A DNA stretch of 64,000 bases, from positions 1-64,000 of the IMG/VR virus record IMGVR_UViG_3300038463_000227. One strand, given 5' to 3'. Shown piece after piece: positions 7,622-48,933 of this stretch. The stretch comes from a virus. The position numbers were made by a program, and so were the translations under genes. The notes beneath the pieces were generated by a model. The model saw only the letters and a list, made by a program, of their open reading frames with translations, did not search any database and was not told where the DNA came from. The first letter of the stretch is position 1. Every line of letters begins with the position of its first letter.

Positions 7622-9172
7622 TTACTTTCCGATTTTGAATCCATCTACAGTATGGACTAATTCATTTGCTTGTTCATTTAGAGACTGTGCAGCAGCTGCC
7701 ATCTCTTCAACTAATGCAGCATTTTGTTGAGTAACATTATCCATATCATTAGCAGCTTGACCAATCTGAGAAATACTCAAAGTTTGTTCTTTGCTAGCTG
7801 TATCAATTTCATTCATGATATTGGTAACTTTATTAGCTACATCAACAATTTCATTCATTCGCTTACCAGCAGCATCAGCTTGGATAGTTCCTTGCTTGAC
7901 TTGATCAACACTAGTAAGAATTAACTGTTTAATCTCTTTTGCAGCGGTGGCAGAACGTTGTGCCAACTGTCTAACTTCACTTGCTACGACCGCAAATCCA
8001 CGACCTTGTTCACCAGCACGAGCCGCTTCAACAGCAGCATTCAATGCAAGAATATTAGTTTGGAATGCTATGCTATCAATAACAGTAATAATCTCTGTAA
8101 TCTTTTTGGATGATTCATTAATTTGTGTCATGGTAACCACAACATCACTAACAACATCACCACCTTTTAATGCCTCATTTGCCATTTGTTGTGCTAACTT
8201 ATTAGCAGCTGATGCAGCTTGAGCATTATCATTAACTGTAGAACCCATTTCTTGAATAGAAGCAACTGTTTCTTCAAGAGATGCAGCTTGACTTTCAGTA
8301 CGACCAGACAAATCCATATTACCTTGGGCAATTTGGTTGGATGCAGTCGCCACTTCATCAGCTCGAGATTTAACATCTTTCACTAATGAAATCAAACTTT
8401 GTTGCATGGTCTTAATAGAAGTTAATAACTTACCAACTTCATCATTACCACCTTCACTAACTTTTTGTGATAAATCACCATTAGCAATATAATCAGCAGC
8501 AGAAACAGCTTCTAGTACTGGTTTAGTTATTGCTTTTGTAATTACATATGTAAGGAAAGCTGATAAAAGTAATGATACAGCTATAGCACATGCAATAATT
8601 AATTTTGTTGTAACAAAAGCAGCTACAGTATTATTGCCTTGTTCACCTGCATATTTTTCATTAAAAACAAATTCTTCTTTTAATGAGTCTTGTATTTTGG
8701 AATATACTTTTCTATTCTCACCAAATAAAATAGTGGCACCAGCTTTAGTAGTAAATTCAGGTGAACCAACAAAGGCTAAAAGTTTATCATCTTCAGCAAA
8801 ATAAAGAGATGCATTTTCTTTTAGTTTATCAAAAATTATTTTTTCTTCTGCATTAGCAACAAAGGGTTCATATTTTTTAATATCATCACTTGTAACTGTT
8901 TTTAATTTTCCAATACGATCAATTAATGAAAGTCGTTCTTCATCAGAAACTTCCATCATTACTTGGCTTTCTAATCGACGGAGTGATCCTACATTTTCTT
9001 TAATACCATCCAAAATAATAATACTTGGGATAACATTGGTAACAAGCTCAGTACTTGCTGCATTCAGTTTTTGTAACTGGAATAACATCACCACACCCAT
9101 AGTGATAGTTAACAAAGTTATAACACTAAACCCTACCATGAGTTTATATGCGAGTCTGAGATTTTTGAACAT
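7622..9172 (-). CDS. Methyl-accepting chemotaxis protein
   Basis: 516 residues and apparently complete. Transmembrane helix 1 lies at residues 10-30 ([18 protein letters not shown]). A four-helix periplasmic sensor domain follows, then helix 2 at about 190-212 ([16 protein letters not shown]), a HAMP domain, methylation-helix segments ([13 protein letters not shown]) and the highly conserved hairpin tip [20 protein letters not shown] that contacts CheA and CheW. There is no C-terminal CheR-docking pentapeptide. In bacteria such proteins control swimming through CheA. A full-length chemoreceptor in a phage is very unusual; it could tune host motility. Gene acquired from a bacterium (inference). 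Confidence 0.95.
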
Positions 9173-9460: not shown

Positions 9461-9538
9461 TGGTGCGTCCGGTGGGAGTCGAACCCACGACCGATAGGAT
9501 TTAGAATCCCCCGCTCTAACCAACTGAGCTACAGACGC
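9461..9538 (-). tRNA. tRNA with CTA anticodon (putative amber suppressor)
   Basis: Acceptor GCGTCTG pairs with CGGACGC, discriminator A, CCA encoded. D arm GCTC/GAGC and T arm GTGGG TTCGACT CCCAC are perfect. The anticodon stem GGGGA/TCCTA (27-43 mismatched) closes a loop TTCTAAA, which puts CTA at positions 34-36 with T at 33. The variable loop is 6 nt, one more than usual. CTA reads the amber codon UAG. The amino acid it carries cannot be told from sequence alone. Confidence 0.7.
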
Positions 9539-40034: not shown

Positions 40035-41528
40035 TTAGATGGAAACCCGATAGCGAACTTCAGCCAATGTGGTTTCATTATACAATTTACCTTGATGATA
40101 AACGACTTGCATAATATCTTCAAAGTCTTCCGAGATTGGACCTAAGTCAAGACGACCAACACTCAATTCACCGGTCATTTTGCTGCGGACCACTGTCAAT
40201 ACACCTTCTTTAGATTTTTTACCACTATCAGTGATAGGATCTTTTGCAATACCTTTCCAGTAAAGATCTTCACTTCCTGGCGATACTTCAACCAAAATCG
40301 CACAAGCTTTTTGTGCAAATTTCAAAGTATCACGATTACATTTTTGTAACAATGCACCACCAGAACCAAACAATACAACATCAGCAGCATAACCATAGCT
40401 GTAAATCAATTTACCAAGCAGTGTGTTAATTGCTAAACGATCAACACCATCACCTTGCAATACACCGACGTGGTTAATTTTTTTGTAACCTTTGCTGGTC
40501 ATTGTATAACCAAAGGCAGTTTCTTGCAAAGCAAGGATACGTGGAACAACTTCCAACATATCACCAGAGTCTGGACGGAATACAACCTTTGCTTTAGATG
40601 CAATGATTTCGTCTTTCAATGGGCTGGTGCAAAGCAATTCAGCTTCACGGTATACATTATAGCCGTCAATTACGATCGATACAATGGTTCCTGGTTCTGC
40701 TAAGGAAAGCATTTTACGCAAATACTTAATAGCATTTTCATTACCATTACCAAAAGAACATTCAACCGCATGTTCAGAAGCGACAACAGAATATGCTGCC
40801 ATGTCTTCTTTGTAGTAGAAGTTTGCAGCCAAGATACCTTCAATTGTATCCGAACCCATGAAGCTAACTGTATGAGCAGCTCCACCAATTTCTGCTTGTT
40901 CTGCACAAGTTACACCCCGGCCACCAAAGTCATGTAGTGCGAAAGGTAACAGATTCATGTCTGCACCAGTTTGTTCATAGTAACGTTTGAGTTCTTGTTT
41001 GACTTCAAAGTCTTGAGTAGCAATGGTAGTTGGATACCATACACCACGTTGAATCATTGTTTCAAATGCAGCTGACATCCATGCCAATACATCATCAATA
41101 ACTGTGACTGTATAAAGTGGTTGACCACCGCGCATTTGGGTACCTTCAGGTACTGCACGAATAGTTAATGGCAGATAGCCATCATAATTAGTAACGACTT
41201 TTTCCCATGCGGCACGAGCAAACAATTTGCGGCCCAGGTGTTTGAATGCAAAGGCTTCTGCATTGTCGATATCTTTAAAGGTGATATGTTGTGTCAAATA
41301 ACGTTTGATCAACAGTTGCATACCAAATGGGATAATATTTTGGCTGTGTGCAACACGTGCTTCACCGTAGGATGTCATTCCTTTAATACCATCTGGGTAC
41401 AAGAAAGGATGAGAAATTTTGTATGAGTCCATACGAAGAATCAAACTGATAACAAGTTGTTCATCTTGTGTATATTGGATATCAGAGGCGGTTGGTGCAA
41501 TTGCTTTTAAATAGTCTGCGAGTTTCAT
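40035..41528 (-). CDS. nadV: Nicotinamide phosphoribosyltransferase
   Basis: 497 residues, the usual length. SYKISHPFLYPDG and TSYGEAR near the N-terminus, the dimer active site LPFALHDFGGRGV, HTVSFMGSDTIEG and the phosphate-binding RPDSGD then GDGVDRLAI are all diagnostic of NAMPT/NadV. It makes NMN from nicotinamide and PRPP. The next gene upstream encodes the NMN adenylyltransferase, so the pair rebuilds NAD+ from nicotinamide in two steps. Phages use this route (NARP2 type) to survive NAD-depleting defence systems. Confidence 0.95.
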   Translation of the reverse strand: MKLADYLKAIAPTASDIQYTQDEQLVISLILRMDSYKISHPFLYPDGIKGMTSYGEARVAHSQNIIPFGMQLLIKRYLTQHITFKDIDNAEAFAFKHLGRKLFARAAWEKVVTNYDGYLPLTIRAVPEGTQMRGGQPLYTVTVIDDVLAWMSAAFETMIQRGVWYPTTIATQDFEVKQELKRYYEQTGADMNLLPFALHDFGGRGVTCAEQAEIGGAAHTVSFMGSDTIEGILAANFYYKEDMAAYSVVASEHAVECSFGNGNENAIKYLRKMLSLAEPGTIVSIVIDGYNVYREAELLCTSPLKDEIIASKAKVVFRPDSGDMLEVVPRILALQETAFGYTMTSKGYKKINHVGVLQGDGVDRLAINTLLGKLIYSYGYAADVVLFGSGGALLQKCNRDTLKFAQKACAILVEVSPGSEDLYWKGIAKDPITDSGKKSKEGVLTVVRSKMTGELSVGRLDLGPISEDFEDIMQVVYHQGKLYNETTLAEVRYRVSI

Positions 41529-41579
41529 AGTAAGCTCCTTACGTTTGTTAAAATATGCCTTGAGTCTATCTCGTGGCAG

Positions 41580-42752
41580 TTAAAGTCTTCCGACCATTGT
41601 TACAACAACATGATAGTGATCTTCAAACCAGTTTTGAGGATTTTTCAGGGCCTCATTGATTGGCAACCACATTGTCCGAATAACTTCACCTTTTTGAGGT
41701 TTCAGTTTTGGTAGTGGTTTACTATCATCTAATTTCAACAGGAAGCAGGTGGTAATAGTACGACCACGTAAGCTGCGAGTTGGGTAATCAAAAATTTCTT
41801 TACTTTTTACAGAACCATATAATTGGGCTTTTGAAAGTCCAATGCTGGTTTCTTCAATTAATTCACGGATTGCACCATCAAGTAATGTTTCATCTTGTTC
41901 AAGGAATCCACCAGGAAGTGCCCAAAGGCCAACACCTGGAAAATCACCACGAACATTAACTAATATATGACCTGACTGAATAACAACAGTATCGACTGTT
42001 GAAAAGATCGGTGCATAAGGAACCCCTATTTTACCACGTAATTCCTGTAATTCGTTAATTAATTGTTGATTAGTTTTAGTTGTGTCATCTTTAAAACAAA
42101 TTGGTTTGTTAGTTTTGATTTTCCAAGCTGTTTTATAGCCTTCAACGAATTCATATTCTTTAACTAATGCAGTATACATTTCTGTTTTTCTGAACTGTGA
42201 TAAGAAGTGAACTGTTTGTGCGGGAACAATATCTTCAATTTCAACTAAAGAATCAGCTCTTGCATGTTGATCAAAAAACATATGACGAACTTTAGTTGCA
42301 CTTAATTCAACTTCAACAGGATGTTGTTCAATCAAGTCAAGTTTGAAAAAGTCACCAAACATTTTAAGGTAATATGTTGATTTATCACGATCAGAACCGG
42401 AAAGATATGTTTCTGGATTTAAGCCAATGATATCAGCCAAATCAGTTTTTGTTTTATCAACTGCATCTTGAACTTCACGAATCCATGCTTGATCATTATA
42501 AGGATGATCATGTAATGGCAAAATTCTAACAGTTGCAATGTTATGACCAGCCCATGTATAATCACGGATTAGTTGTTCACGTTCTAAATAGGTAAAGGGG
42601 TTTTTTGTATTGCGGGCTTGATCAGCACTGCCTATTAGTATAAGGACAGCTTTTGATGTTTTCAAAGCACGTTGGATTAATTCGCAATGTCCATTATGTA
42701 ATGGTGAGAATCGACCGATGATGACTGTTAAGTCTTTTTTACTGGTTTCCAT
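41580..42752 (-). CDS. Bifunctional NMN adenylyltransferase / Nudix hydrolase
   Basis: 390 residues in two domains. Residues 8-180: IIGRFSPLHNGHCELI (the HxGH nucleotidyl-transfer site) and the later SATKVR, as in NadM-type NMN adenylyltransferases, which make NAD+ from NMN and ATP. Residues 235-385: a Nudix box GGFLEQDETLLDGAIRELIE, hydrolysing ADP-ribose or similar. Same fusion as in cyanobacterial and several phage proteins. Upstream of nadV and probably co-transcribed with it, from a promoter with TATAAT near 42825. Confidence 0.93.
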   Translation of the reverse strand: METSKKDLTVIIGRFSPLHNGHCELIQRALKTSKAVLILIGSADQARNTKNPFTYLEREQLIRDYTWAGHNIATVRILPLHDHPYNDQAWIREVQDAVDKTKTDLADIIGLNPETYLSGSDRDKSTYYLKMFGDFFKLDLIEQHPVEVELSATKVRHMFFDQHARADSLVEIEDIVPAQTVHFLSQFRKTEMYTALVKEYEFVEGYKTAWKIKTNKPICFKDDTTKTNQQLINELQELRGKIGVPYAPIFSTVDTVVIQSGHILVNVRGDFPGVGLWALPGGFLEQDETLLDGAIRELIEETSIGLSKAQLYGSVKSKEIFDYPTRSLRGRTITTCFLLKLDDSKPLPKLKPQKGEVIRTMWLPINEALKNPQNWFEDHYHVVVTMVGRL

Positions 42753-42850: not shown

Positions 42851-43306
42851 TTACCCTATAATACAAAGCACATCAAGTTCTGTCATTGTGACATACTCAA
42901 CACCTTCAATTTTGACTGCATGACCACTATACTTCCCAAACAAGATTTGGTCTCCAATTTTGACTTCAAGTGGAACTAAATGTCCATCTCTGTGGTATTT
43001 ACCAGGACCAACTGCTACAACCACACCTTGATCAGGTTTTTCAGCTGCTTGAGCTGTATCAGGGATGATAATACCACTTTTTGATTTTACTTCGTTTTCA
43101 TCACGAATAACGATAACGCGATCATGTAATGCTCTTAATTTAAGTTGTTTCATGTTTTCCTTATTTAAAGTTTCTTGTTCATGTCTAGCAAAGACCCCAT
43201 CCATATAGGCATCAAGATTGTTTTTGAATTCTTCATTACTTAGCTTACCAAGTCTTGTAAAAACAGTATCTATAGCTTCTTTTAGTTGAGGATCAATATT
43301 TGACAT
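42851..43306 (-). CDS. groES: GroES co-chaperonin with N-terminal extension
   Basis: 151 residues. From residue 53 (MKQLKLRALHDRVIV) the sequence is a standard GroES: SKSGIIIPDTA with the mobile loop, VVVAVGPGKY, and GDQILFGKYSG. It caps GroEL to fold proteins. The first 52 residues are extra and helical (MSNIDPQLKEAIDTVF). An internal ATG at 43153 with AAGGAAAAC upstream gives the normal about 100-residue GroES, whereas the first ATG has a poor site; both products may be made. Confidence 0.9.
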   Translation of the reverse strand: MSNIDPQLKEAIDTVFTRLGKLSNEEFKNNLDAYMDGVFARHEQETLNKENMKQLKLRALHDRVIVIRDENEVKSKSGIIIPDTAQAAEKPDQGVVVAVGPGKYHRDGHLVPLEVKIGDQILFGKYSGHAVKIEGVEYVTMTELDVLCIIG

Positions 43307-45202: not shown

Positions 45203-45457
45203 CTATTTATAGATTTTTTTACTCAAGTTTTCAAAGTTTAATATTTCTCTGGTATCAACTAAATCAGTGTATTCAATTAAAATATCAATGTGTTCTTGTT
45301 TTAAAGTGAAGGGAATATTTGGGATACTAACACCCATGTTAGTGAAGGCCCAATCTTTTGCTGCAGGAATATCAACAACACCAAATTGATCAGAATAAGA
45401 ATAGAACACTAATAGTAATTGTATTTCAAGTGGATGAATACCGTCTGGTTTTTCCAT
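45203..45457 (-). CDS. Small unknown protein ending in TAG
   Basis: 84 residues, starts MEKPDGIHPLEIQLLL. Compact alpha/beta. Ends KKIYK-TAG. Placed right after the tmRNA terminator. Confidence 0.65.
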   Translation of the reverse strand: MEKPDGIHPLEIQLLLVFYSYSDQFGVVDIPAAKDWAFTNMGVSIPNIPFTLKQEHIDILIEYTDLVDTREILNFENLSKKIYK

Positions 45458-45493: not shown

Positions 45494-45525
45494 AATAATA
45501 CCTCCTTTTTAGGGGAGGTATTATT
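45494..45525 (-). terminator. Terminator after the tmRNA gene
   Basis: AATAATACCTCC / GGAGGTATTATT, 12-bp hairpin on the minus strand with an A-rich loop. Confidence 0.75.
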
Positions 45526-45534
45526 TTGCCGTTT

Positions 45535-45893
45535 TGTTATAAGGTGGTTAACCTCAATGGACTAGGCCGCTAGGCGTAGGTCTCCATAGAATGCGTCATT
45601 GCTTGCATTTAAAGTTTTTGCTATCTTTACGTCATTCGCCTGACGAGCGCGTTAATCGTTACTAATCTGTTAGTCGATACCATTTCAGGCCCATCAAAAG
45701 TATTCTGTATCCAGCTGCTCATGTCTGGGTGGGAGAGAAAGTATTACATTGGCCTAACTAACCATCTCCTCAACTAGCCAAATCATCATGTACTAGCACT
45801 ATACACATCTACAAAATACTTTTGGTGGACCTGGCGGGAGTCGAACCCGCGTGTTAACAACCTTTCTCAACCACCGTTTACGCTGTTTTAAAA
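45535..45893 (-). ncRNA. ssrA: Circularly permuted two-piece tmRNA
   Basis: In transcription order: acceptor piece first (about 45893-45823), with T arm GCGGG TTCGACT CCCGC and acceptor CAGGTCC-A-CCA; then an intervening segment closed by a 14-bp stem (13 pairs) at 45696-45709/45810-45823; then the coding piece from 45692 (GGGCCTGAAATGGTATCGAC, like the conserved tmRNA 5' end). GGGCCTG pairs with CAGGTCC and keeps the G3:U70 alanine identity. The tag frame 45621-45562 reads AKTLNASNDAFYGDLRLAA then TAG; it ends in the LAA degron. GGTGGTT and AACCACC rejoin the two pieces. tmRNA rescues stalled ribosomes. Confidence 0.87.
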
Positions 45894-45894
45894 C

Positions 45895-46266
45895 TTATGC
45901 CTTCTCATCTACATATTTTTCAAAATCCTTCCAAAGCTTATCCGTATAACCAGGAAGATCTTCTACCTTAGTACCAGCTGGATAAGTTTTAACAATTTCT
46001 TGACCATCCTCATCATATAAACCAAAAGGTTTTGTTGTTTTAACACTTTTTACATCAGTTTCAACCCAATCAGGTTCTTGTGCATGACCTTGACCATATG
46101 GGTGCCATTCACCTGCACCACCATCTATGGTATATTCAATCTCAAGATCAAGTGGTTCCATCCATTTACCATCTTTGGCTTGAGGCATTTCATACTCTTT
46201 ATAAACCATTGAACGTGTAGATGGGTGAGGATGTGGACGTGCTTCTAATAATTCTGCTACTTTCAT
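45895..46266 (-). CDS. Unknown acidic protein
   Basis: 123 residues, starts MKVAELLEARPHPHPS. Tyr/Trp/Glu-rich, with a KAEDLPGYTDKLW-like end. Directly upstream of the tmRNA with no gap, so possibly co-transcribed. No family recognised. Confidence 0.7.
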   Translation of the reverse strand: MKVAELLEARPHPHPSTRSMVYKEYEMPQAKDGKWMEPLDLEIEYTIDGGAGEWHPYGQGHAQEPDWVETDVKSVKTTKPFGLYDEDGQEIVKTYPAGTKVEDLPGYTDKLWKDFEKYVDEKA

Positions 46267-46290: not shown

Positions 46291-46482
46291 TTACTTAGTA
46301 TAAATAACTTCAATTAATGAAGAACTGGCTTCACGGTAGTATTGAACCCAACCAGCTAAAACAGCATCACCTTCAGGATCACCAACAACTGTTGATGGAT
46401 CATAAGAAACAGTACAAACCTGAGTACCAGATTCTACTAAAGTTTCTAATGCTTGTTTCATTGTAAGTGTAAAATTGTTCAT
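46291..46482 (-). CDS. Small unknown protein
   Basis: 63 residues; MNNFTLTMKQALETLVESG opening, then a beta-rich end with WVQYYREASSS. Start after GGAGCTTAA. No family recognised. Confidence 0.65.
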   Translation of the reverse strand: MNNFTLTMKQALETLVESGTQVCTVSYDPSTVVGDPEGDAVLAGWVQYYREASSSLIEVIYTK

Positions 46483-47874: not shown

Positions 47875-48933
47875 TTAAGCTACCTCTCTTTTATTTGTTT
47901 CAACTTTAGTAATCATATGACCACAACCATTGCAGTGACTACATTCGGCAACACCAGCATTAATGATGTTCATTAAATTATCCAAATAGTAATCTATCTG
48001 TTCTTTCATTTCTGAAAGTGAATTTGCTGACCATCCTTCAATTGGTGTATATCCTTGATAACCATCAGGTCGTTGGTTATATCCACGATATGTCATTTCA
48101 AACAGTTCAACTTCTTTGGTTGATACTGTTGCCTTTTTATACTTTGAATATTTGTGTTTATTACCCTTAGCAGTTCTTTCTTCATACATATAATCATAAG
48201 GTTTGATTTTGACAATCCGTTTTACGGTAAAACAAAAATCATGATTGGATGTAATCTTAGCCACTTTAGGATTGATATTTTCAATAACATGCTGTCTAAC
48301 AATACGGAAAACCTGATTTGAAGTTAAATGGCATGGACGTTCATGCATCAAAAATTCAGGAGTTAACAGTTTTTGAATATCTTCATAGTAGACAATAGAG
48401 GATAAATCTTGTTCATCCACTTTGTTATCATCCCACATATCCCGACGTGCTAACTTAACTTTCATTTGAATTGGCTTTTCATATGACTCAATTTCAAATT
48501 CACGTAATACTACCACTTCCCAATTTTCATGGGGTTTCCAACCTGCTTCGGTAGTTGTATGGACAGCTTCATATAGTGGCTGAATATTGGTATAATTCTG
48601 CCATACATCATAGCCATCACCATTCCGGTTAGTTTCAACATATTGATTGTTGACTTCTTCAGGAAACAGTTCTAAAGGAATTGATGGGAAATTATGTAAA
48701 GTCGCATCCTTGAGTTTATATTTTACAATAACATTTTTTGGATATGTTTTTTCTTCAACAGTTGTAATTTCGGTTGCACCAGGAATAAAGACAAACCCAT
48801 TATTAACAGGTAAGTCTTCTATGCCATTAACTTTATAATGCCATTGCTGACTGGTACCCCAAAGACTTTTGATAAAAATACCAAGGTTGGTCTTATAGAT
48901 TTCAAGTTTGGTTACTCTAATATTACTCATCAT
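47875..48933 (-). CDS. Unknown 352-residue protein with C-terminal Cys motif
   Basis: Start at MMSNIRVTKLEIYKTNLG. Beta-rich, many charged and aromatic residues; the end ECSHCNGCGHMITK offers a C-x2-C-x2-C metal site. Size and low similarity suggest a virion-associated or regulatory phage protein; not recognised. Confidence 0.7.
   Translation of the reverse strand: MMSNIRVTKLEIYKTNLGIFIKSLWGTSQQWHYKVNGIEDLPVNNGFVFIPGATEITTVEEKTYPKNVIVKYKLKDATLHNFPSIPLELFPEEVNNQYVETNRNGDGYDVWQNYTNIQPLYEAVHTTTEAGWKPHENWEVVVLREFEIESYEKPIQMKVKLARRDMWDDNKVDEQDLSSIVYYEDIQKLLTPEFLMHERPCHLTSNQVFRIVRQHVIENINPKVAKITSNHDFCFTVKRIVKIKPYDYMYEERTAKGNKHKYSKYKKATVSTKEVELFEMTYRGYNQRPDGYQGYTPIEGWSANSLSEMKEQIDYYLDNLMNIINAGVAECSHCNGCGHMITKVETNKREVA

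What the first reader, a model, noticed from the sequence alone, without database searches (positions are those of the whole stretch)
45535..45893. Phage-encoded circularly permuted two-piece tmRNA
Acceptor segment with T arm and CCA precedes the coding segment; a 14-position stem (13 pairs) closes the intervening piece; the 5' GGGCCTG pairs with 3' CAGGTCC and keeps G3:U70; the tag ends LAA. Permuted tmRNAs are established in some bacterial lineages; I know of tmRNA in a few phages, but not of this permuted form.
Basis: partly seen in the sequence, partly recalled or inferred. Interest (0 to 1): 0.9.

Follow-up and report, generated by a model that had tools for sequence, protein, structure and literature searches.

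The report
Permuted two-piece tmRNA in a phage
A large phage carries its own ribosome-rescue RNA (tmRNA) in the rearranged, two-piece form; the gene is real, but many phages turn out to have it, and the unexpected part is that in some relatives the throw-away piece between the two halves encodes a small protein.

Summary
Window 45,562-45,884 (minus strand) is a circularly permuted tmRNA gene: Rfam RF04321 (tmRNA_permuted) 96.3 bits against a cut-off of 47, E 2e-17; ARAGORN reads it as permuted with tag ASNDAFYGDLRLAA. The intervening piece, 45,693-45,822, is closed by a fully paired 15-position stem (one G-U), and the acceptor stem keeps G3:U70. The carrier is a phage: a 140.8-kb IMG/VR contig continues it at 100% identity and encodes a T4-type terminase. 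SmpB was not found in either contig, so the host must supply it. The novelty claim fails: Buchholz et al. 2022 reported 53 two-piece tmRNAs among phages, and I found 128 more, including unannotated ones in phages DLP_6, X1 and XacN1. Across 64 distinct stems the intervening stem covaries (91% paired; 65% with shuffled partners). Most likely it is a working two-piece tmRNA that uses host SmpB to rescue ribosomes during infection (inferred). The surprise lies in relatives: 14 of 80 intervening segments hold ORFs beyond chance, one family under purifying selection (dN/dS about 0.1) at a fixed position. I found no report of such nested genes. The window's own segment has none.

The parts
45823..45890 (-). 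acceptor piece of the tmRNA (P2 5' side, T arm, acceptor 3' strand CAGGTCC, A73, encoded CCA); its 5' end is uncertain
   Evidence: RF04321 alignment, ARAGORN, coordinates
45827..45833 (-). 3' strand of the acceptor stem (CAGGTCC), pairs with 45692-45686, G3:U70 kept
45693..45822 (-). intervening segment (130 nt), predicted to be removed during processing; no ORF of note in it
45810..45824 (-). 5' arm of the intervening stem (CAAAAGTATTTTGTA; its first two bases belong to CCA)
   Evidence: fold; covariation in 64 relatives
45695..45709 (-). 3' arm of the intervening stem (TACAGAATACTTTTG)
45526..45692 (-). coding piece (acceptor 5' strand GGGCCTG, D-loop analogue, resume codon, tag); 3' end uncertain
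45562..45606 (-). tag reading frame GCA...GCC TAG = ASNDAFYGDLRLAA*
45494..45525 (-). terminator-like hairpin (12 pairs), weak T tail
   Evidence: also the 3' end of the beta_tmRNA alignment
45895..46266 (-). upstream gene (123 aa, no Pfam match); its stop codon lies just before the acceptor piece, so co-transcription is likely (inferred)
45203..45457 (-). downstream gene (84 aa); a homologue (45%) also follows the permuted tmRNA of IMG/VR locus L009
46291..46482 (-). gene two places upstream (63 aa); a homologue (54%) lies two places upstream of the tmRNA in L009

Best explanation
A phage gene for a working two-piece tmRNA. The precursor is probably made as the tail of a minus-strand gene cluster and ends at the hairpin near 45,500. 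The 15-pair stem folds the intervening segment out; host tRNA-processing enzymes cut before G45692 and after CCA45823 and leave an acceptor piece and a coding piece held together by the acceptor stem and P2. Host AlaRS charges it through G3:U70, host SmpB brings it to ribosomes stalled on broken mRNA, and the tag ...LAA sends the stalled product to a ClpXP-type protease. During infection this would keep ribosomes available when host or defence nucleases cut mRNA. The gene, its anatomy, its covariation and its spread in phages are shown; processing, charging, activity and benefit are inferred.
For: RF04321 96.3 bits, E 2e-17; permuted by ARAGORN. Acceptor stem with G3:U70, T loop GGTTCGA, CCA, resume motif TAAATGCA and tag ending LAA all intact. 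The intervening stem covaries across 64 distinct stems: pairs 4-13 are 91% paired against 65% (maximum 70%) with shuffled partners and at most 68% with slid partners. Of 130 permuted tmRNAs (the window, 128 others from viral records, one from a genome contig), 128 encode CCA and 102 tags end LAA. Conserved neighbourhood in L009. Near-identical tag ANDAFYGEDRLAA in two other viral contigs. The window also encodes many tRNAs, a CCA-adding enzyme, NAD salvage and Gad1, in keeping with a phage that supplies its own translation and counter-defence tools.
Against: No RNA or infection data. SmpB was not found in the record or its 140.8-kb continuation, so it depends on the host. The score is below the betaproteobacterial subtype cut-off (67.7 against 84), so it is divergent. 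The tag stop is TAG while the same phage encodes a CTA-anticodon tRNA (9461-9538) that might read through it. No sigma-70-type promoter match was seen nearby on the minus strand.
Confidence: 0.78

Rival explanations
1. It is an inhibitor or decoy: the tRNA-like domain titrates host SmpB or blocks host trans-translation, as proposed for the tRNA-domain-only RNA of mycobacteriophage DS6A.
For: Phages without SmpB but with a tmRNA would draw on the host pool. PMC4131195 notes that a TLD-only RNA inhibits tmRNA.
Against: The tag frame, resume motif and degron-like end are all kept, and 102 of 130 tags end LAA; a decoy would not need them.
Confidence: 0.1
2. It is a captured host gene fragment or an integration-site remnant without function.
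For: Bacterial ssrA genes are common integration sites (PMC9004378), and the phage collection holds such fragments in temperate phages (matches at ssrA ends).
Against: The gene is complete and structurally intact, stems are kept by compensatory changes, it lies in conserved phage synteny, and the phage has a T4-type terminase typical of virulent phages. No integrase turned up among the ORFs scanned, but no dedicated search was made.
Confidence: 0.05
3. It is a working tmRNA whose main job is to change what gets tagged, for example to recycle host proteins for amino acids, as speculated for phage Melnitz.
For: Tag ASNDAFYGDLRLAA resembles ANDAFYGEDRLAA and ANDSDFYGDNVLPMAA of other viral contigs, so the phage tag may be kept for its own sake.
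Against: Most viral tags are ordinary (ANDxxxALAA), and no host was identified for comparison.
Confidence: 0.07

Closest known systems
Rfam RF04321 tmRNA_permuted (alpha, beta and cyanobacterial two-piece tmRNA; PMC11915505)
   Same: gene order acceptor piece, intervening segment, coding piece; tRNA domain; tag; passes the gathering score
   Different: in a phage; below the cut-off of the nearest subtype RF01850; long 130-nt intervening segment
Two-piece tmRNA of Methylophilales phage Melnitz and other marine phages (PMC9004378)
   Same: phage-encoded, permuted, two-piece prediction
   Different: Melnitz ssrA groups with alphaproteobacterial genes and carries a glutamine riboswitch; here the best subtype is beta-like and no riboswitch was found
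Permuted tmRNAs found here, unannotated, in Stenotrophomonas phage DLP_6 and Xanthomonas phages X1 and XacN1
   Same: permuted gene, same junction TGAT|GGG, same stem layout; XacN1 has the closest terminase in the phage collection, 49%
   Different: tags ANDDSFAPMAIAA, VAANDADYSVARYA, ANANTFDYALAA; the three phages infect Xanthomonadaceae, whose own ssrA I recall as one-piece (memory, not tested)
One-piece tmRNA of mycobacteriophages Bxz1 and Wildcat, Bacillus phage G; TLD-only RNA of DS6A (PMC4131195)
   Same: phage-encoded tmRNA
   Different: not the permuted form

Membership tests
tmRNA_permuted (RF04321) | covariance score above the gathering score | tested here: met
   96.3 bits against 47
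tmRNA_permuted (RF04321) | acceptor piece upstream of the coding piece, with an intervening segment | tested here: met
tmRNA_permuted (RF04321) | alanine identity pair G3:U70 in a 7-pair acceptor stem, CCA end | tested here: met
tmRNA_permuted (RF04321) | resume codon and short tag frame with a degron-like end | tested here: met
   GCA resume, ASNDAFYGDLRLAA
tmRNA_permuted (RF04321) | processed into two RNAs held together by pairing | not testable with these tools
   needs RNA data; the covarying intervening stem is in keeping with it
tmRNA_permuted (RF04321) | charging with alanine and binding to SmpB | not testable with these tools
   needs biochemistry; SmpB not found in the phage records
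beta_tmRNA (RF01850) | score above the subtype's gathering score | tested here: not met
   67.7 bits against 84, though the whole model aligns
standard one-piece tmRNA (RF00023) | coding part upstream of the acceptor part in one RNA | tested here: not met
   the order is reversed; no RF00023 match was listed

The most novel reading that the evidence does not exclude
In phages the piece cut out of the permuted tmRNA precursor is an exchangeable cassette that can house a translated small gene. In one type the ribosome-binding site lies in or next to the 5' arm of the processing stem and the stop codon is the TGA of the conserved TTGAT|GGG junction, so that making the tmRNA and making the peptide are physically coupled. 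The window's tmRNA belongs to this class but its own segment carries no such gene.
Probability: 0.6. Interest if true: 0.68.

Novelty: new member of a known kind. Interest (0 to 1): 0.45.

Why it matters
It adds a clear, divergent phage member to a kind that annotation pipelines miss: the permuted tmRNAs of DLP_6, X1 and XacN1 are unannotated in their records. It also supplies a large comparative set that supports the processing stem by covariation. If the nested small genes in relatives are real, the spacer of a split RNA gene is a new place for phages to keep protein genes, and one could test whether translation of the spacer affects tmRNA processing.

Tried and rejected
Integration-site remnant: rejected because the gene is complete and constrained. 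Phage-encoded SmpB: none found. Genome-wide TAG recoding because of the CTA tRNA: not supported, TAG still ends about 10 of 100 called genes. A closest bacterial relative: two genome scans for the junction plus D-loop motif found 0 and 3 stretches, of which one (L192, labelled uncultured Prochlorococcus) reads as a permuted tmRNA and two do not by ARAGORN; the patterns were narrow, so this does not show that bacteria lack it. A very close DNA relative of the window tmRNA in viral contigs: none with the pattern used. Relatives of the gene next to the tmRNA (45895-46266): none in phages or viral contigs. Host: not identified.

Full report
What is there. On the minus strand of the window, ARAGORN finds one permuted tmRNA and Rfam finds RF04321, tmRNA_permuted, at 45,884-45,562 with 96.3 bits (cut-off 47, E 2e-17, full-length model match). 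The nearest subtype model, beta_tmRNA, aligns over its whole length but scores 67.7, below its cut-off of 84. The acceptor piece comes first and ends with an encoded CCA at 45,823. The intervening segment is 45,693-45,822. The coding piece starts with GGGCCTG at 45,692. The tag is ASNDAFYGDLRLAA, and a terminator-like hairpin lies at 45,525-45,494. The one correction is that the intervening stem has 15 positions, all paired, with one G-U; it starts in the CCA itself.

More than chance. The precursor folds better than all 100 shuffles (z -3.28). The stronger evidence is comparative. Pattern scans gave 130 permuted tmRNAs by ARAGORN: the window, 128 others from viral records (three of them GenBank phages) and one from a genome contig. 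In the first 64 distinct intervening stems, pairs 4 to 13 are 91% paired, against a mean of 65% and a maximum of 70% when partners are shuffled, and at most 68% when slid. Pairs 1 to 3 are left out because most loci were found with a pattern that fixes TTG; ARAGORN, to my knowledge, does not ask for this stem. The acceptor stem also varies in step and keeps G3:U70 in 74 of 74, but ARAGORN selects for acceptor pairing, so that counts less. A caveat on the sample: short IMG/VR contigs may include stray host DNA, and related sequences are not independent, but permuted tmRNAs over the cut-off also sit in contigs of 163 to 282 kb.

The carrier. The window is part of an IMG/VR virus record of 71,919 bases. 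A second contig of 140,766 bases overlaps it from about 59,112 on at 100% identity, so this phage population probably has a genome of about 200 kb or more. That contig encodes a T4-type terminase whose best matches are Xanthomonas phage XacN1 (49%), Pseudomonas phage PA5oct and Sinorhizobium phage Phosso. SmpB was not found in either contig or in eleven other tmRNA-bearing virus records, so host SmpB is assumed; some of these records are fragments.

Neighbourhood. The stop codon of gene 45,895-46,266 lies a few bases before the acceptor piece, and the next gene on the same strand follows the hairpin, so the tmRNA probably rides in a minus-strand operon (inference). IMG/VR locus L009 has the same layout: homologues of 46,291-46,482 (54%) and 45,203-45,457 (45%) on the two sides of a permuted tmRNA. 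Two other viral contigs carry the tag ANDAFYGEDRLAA and a third ANDSDFYGDNVLPMAA, so the window's unusual tag has relatives.

How it probably works. The covarying stem closes the spacer and presents both ends for tRNA-processing enzymes; the two pieces stay paired; alanine is charged through G3:U70; host SmpB delivers it to stalled ribosomes; the LAA end targets the product to a protease. These steps are established knowledge for bacterial tmRNA but none was tested here. The phage encodes some two dozen tRNAs, a CCA-adding enzyme, NAD salvage enzymes and Gad1, which fits a phage that supports translation and counters defences; the link to tmRNA is inference.

Prior art. PMC9004378 reports a two-piece tmRNA in phage Melnitz and 53 two-piece forms among 133 phage tmRNA structures. 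PMC11915505 built RF04321 and lists 79 phage tmRNA sequences. PMC4131195 lists earlier phage tmRNAs. The class is therefore known; this is a new, divergent member. DLP_6, X1 and XacN1 carry permuted tmRNAs that their records do not annotate.

What was not expected. In a subset of relatives the spacer encodes a small protein. Of 80 distinct spacers of at least 60 nt, 14 have an ATG reading frame longer than 99% of dinucleotide shuffles, where 0.8 are expected. Many of these frames start just after the 5' arm of the stem, often with a Shine-Dalgarno-like AAAGGAG in that arm, and stop at the TGA of the junction TTGAT|GGG. One family of 50 residues sits at offset 10 in 175-nt spacers of several phages; its pairwise dN/dS is about 0.1 among diverged copies, a free-standing copy exists (L213), and in L222 the frame persists where the tmRNA is no longer recognised. 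The spacer frame of L180 belongs to phrog_13558 (E 1e-12) and has relatives in cyanophages and Stenotrophomonas phages. A 62-residue frame is identical in L223 and L224 although the tmRNAs around it differ in acceptor and tag, as if spacers are exchanged as cassettes. I found no paper that reports this in the open-access library searched, which misses most subscription journals. The window's own spacer has no such frame, so this raises the interest of the class more than of this copy.

Noticed in passing
L085, L207-L212, L215-L221 (IMG/VR); free-standing L213-L214; decayed tmRNA L222: A 50-aa protein (MKYKIVVK...) is encoded inside the 175-nt intervening segment of permuted tmRNAs, under purifying selection (dN/dS about 0.1).
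   Followed up: yes
L083, L099, L106, L117, L121, L125, L147, L199, L201, L202 and others: 22 to 26-residue hydrophobic peptides, many ending ..HVFF, encoded in the tmRNA intervening segment and stopping at the TGA of the conserved junction TTGAT|GGG, often with a ribosome-binding site in the stem's 5' arm.
   Followed up: partly
L180, L130/L223-L226, L189/L193, L122/L149, L145: Further unrelated small proteins in tmRNA intervening segments, one of phrog_13558; identical spacers occur in different tmRNAs, as if exchanged as cassettes.
   Followed up: partly
L067 (DLP_6), L068 (X1), L069 (XacN1): Unannotated permuted tmRNA genes in published Stenotrophomonas and Xanthomonas phages.
   Followed up: partly
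L083, L091, L098, L117, L122, L141, L149, L173, L174, L180, L189: Unusually long predicted tags of about 27 to 33 residues, several with a second tag-like motif (..AANDSRFALAA) near the end.
   Followed up: no
window 9461-9538 and 45562-45564: The phage encodes a tRNA with anticodon CTA while its tmRNA tag ends in TAG, so read-through of the tag is conceivable; TAG is otherwise a normal stop here.
   Followed up: partly
window 47875-48933: Gad1 family (Gabija anti-defence 1), Pfam PF25705, E 6.6e-47.
   Followed up: no
window 40035-42752: NAMPT and a cytidylyltransferase-NUDIX protein: an NAD salvage pair of the kind that counters NAD-depleting defences.
   Followed up: no
window 7622-9172: A whole methyl-accepting chemotaxis protein (4HB sensor, HAMP, signalling domain) in a phage; also matches phrog_8572.
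   Followed up: no
window 36711-38000: Adenylosuccinate synthetase of the phage PurZ-like family (phrog_1211), which might point to altered adenine in the DNA.
   Followed up: no
window 42851-43306: GroES-like co-chaperonin (Cpn10).
   Followed up: no
L005 1267-2151 (140.8-kb contig): The terminase reading frame ends in a stretch (CLSASTSINAC...) that may be the start of an intein or an insertion.
   Followed up: no
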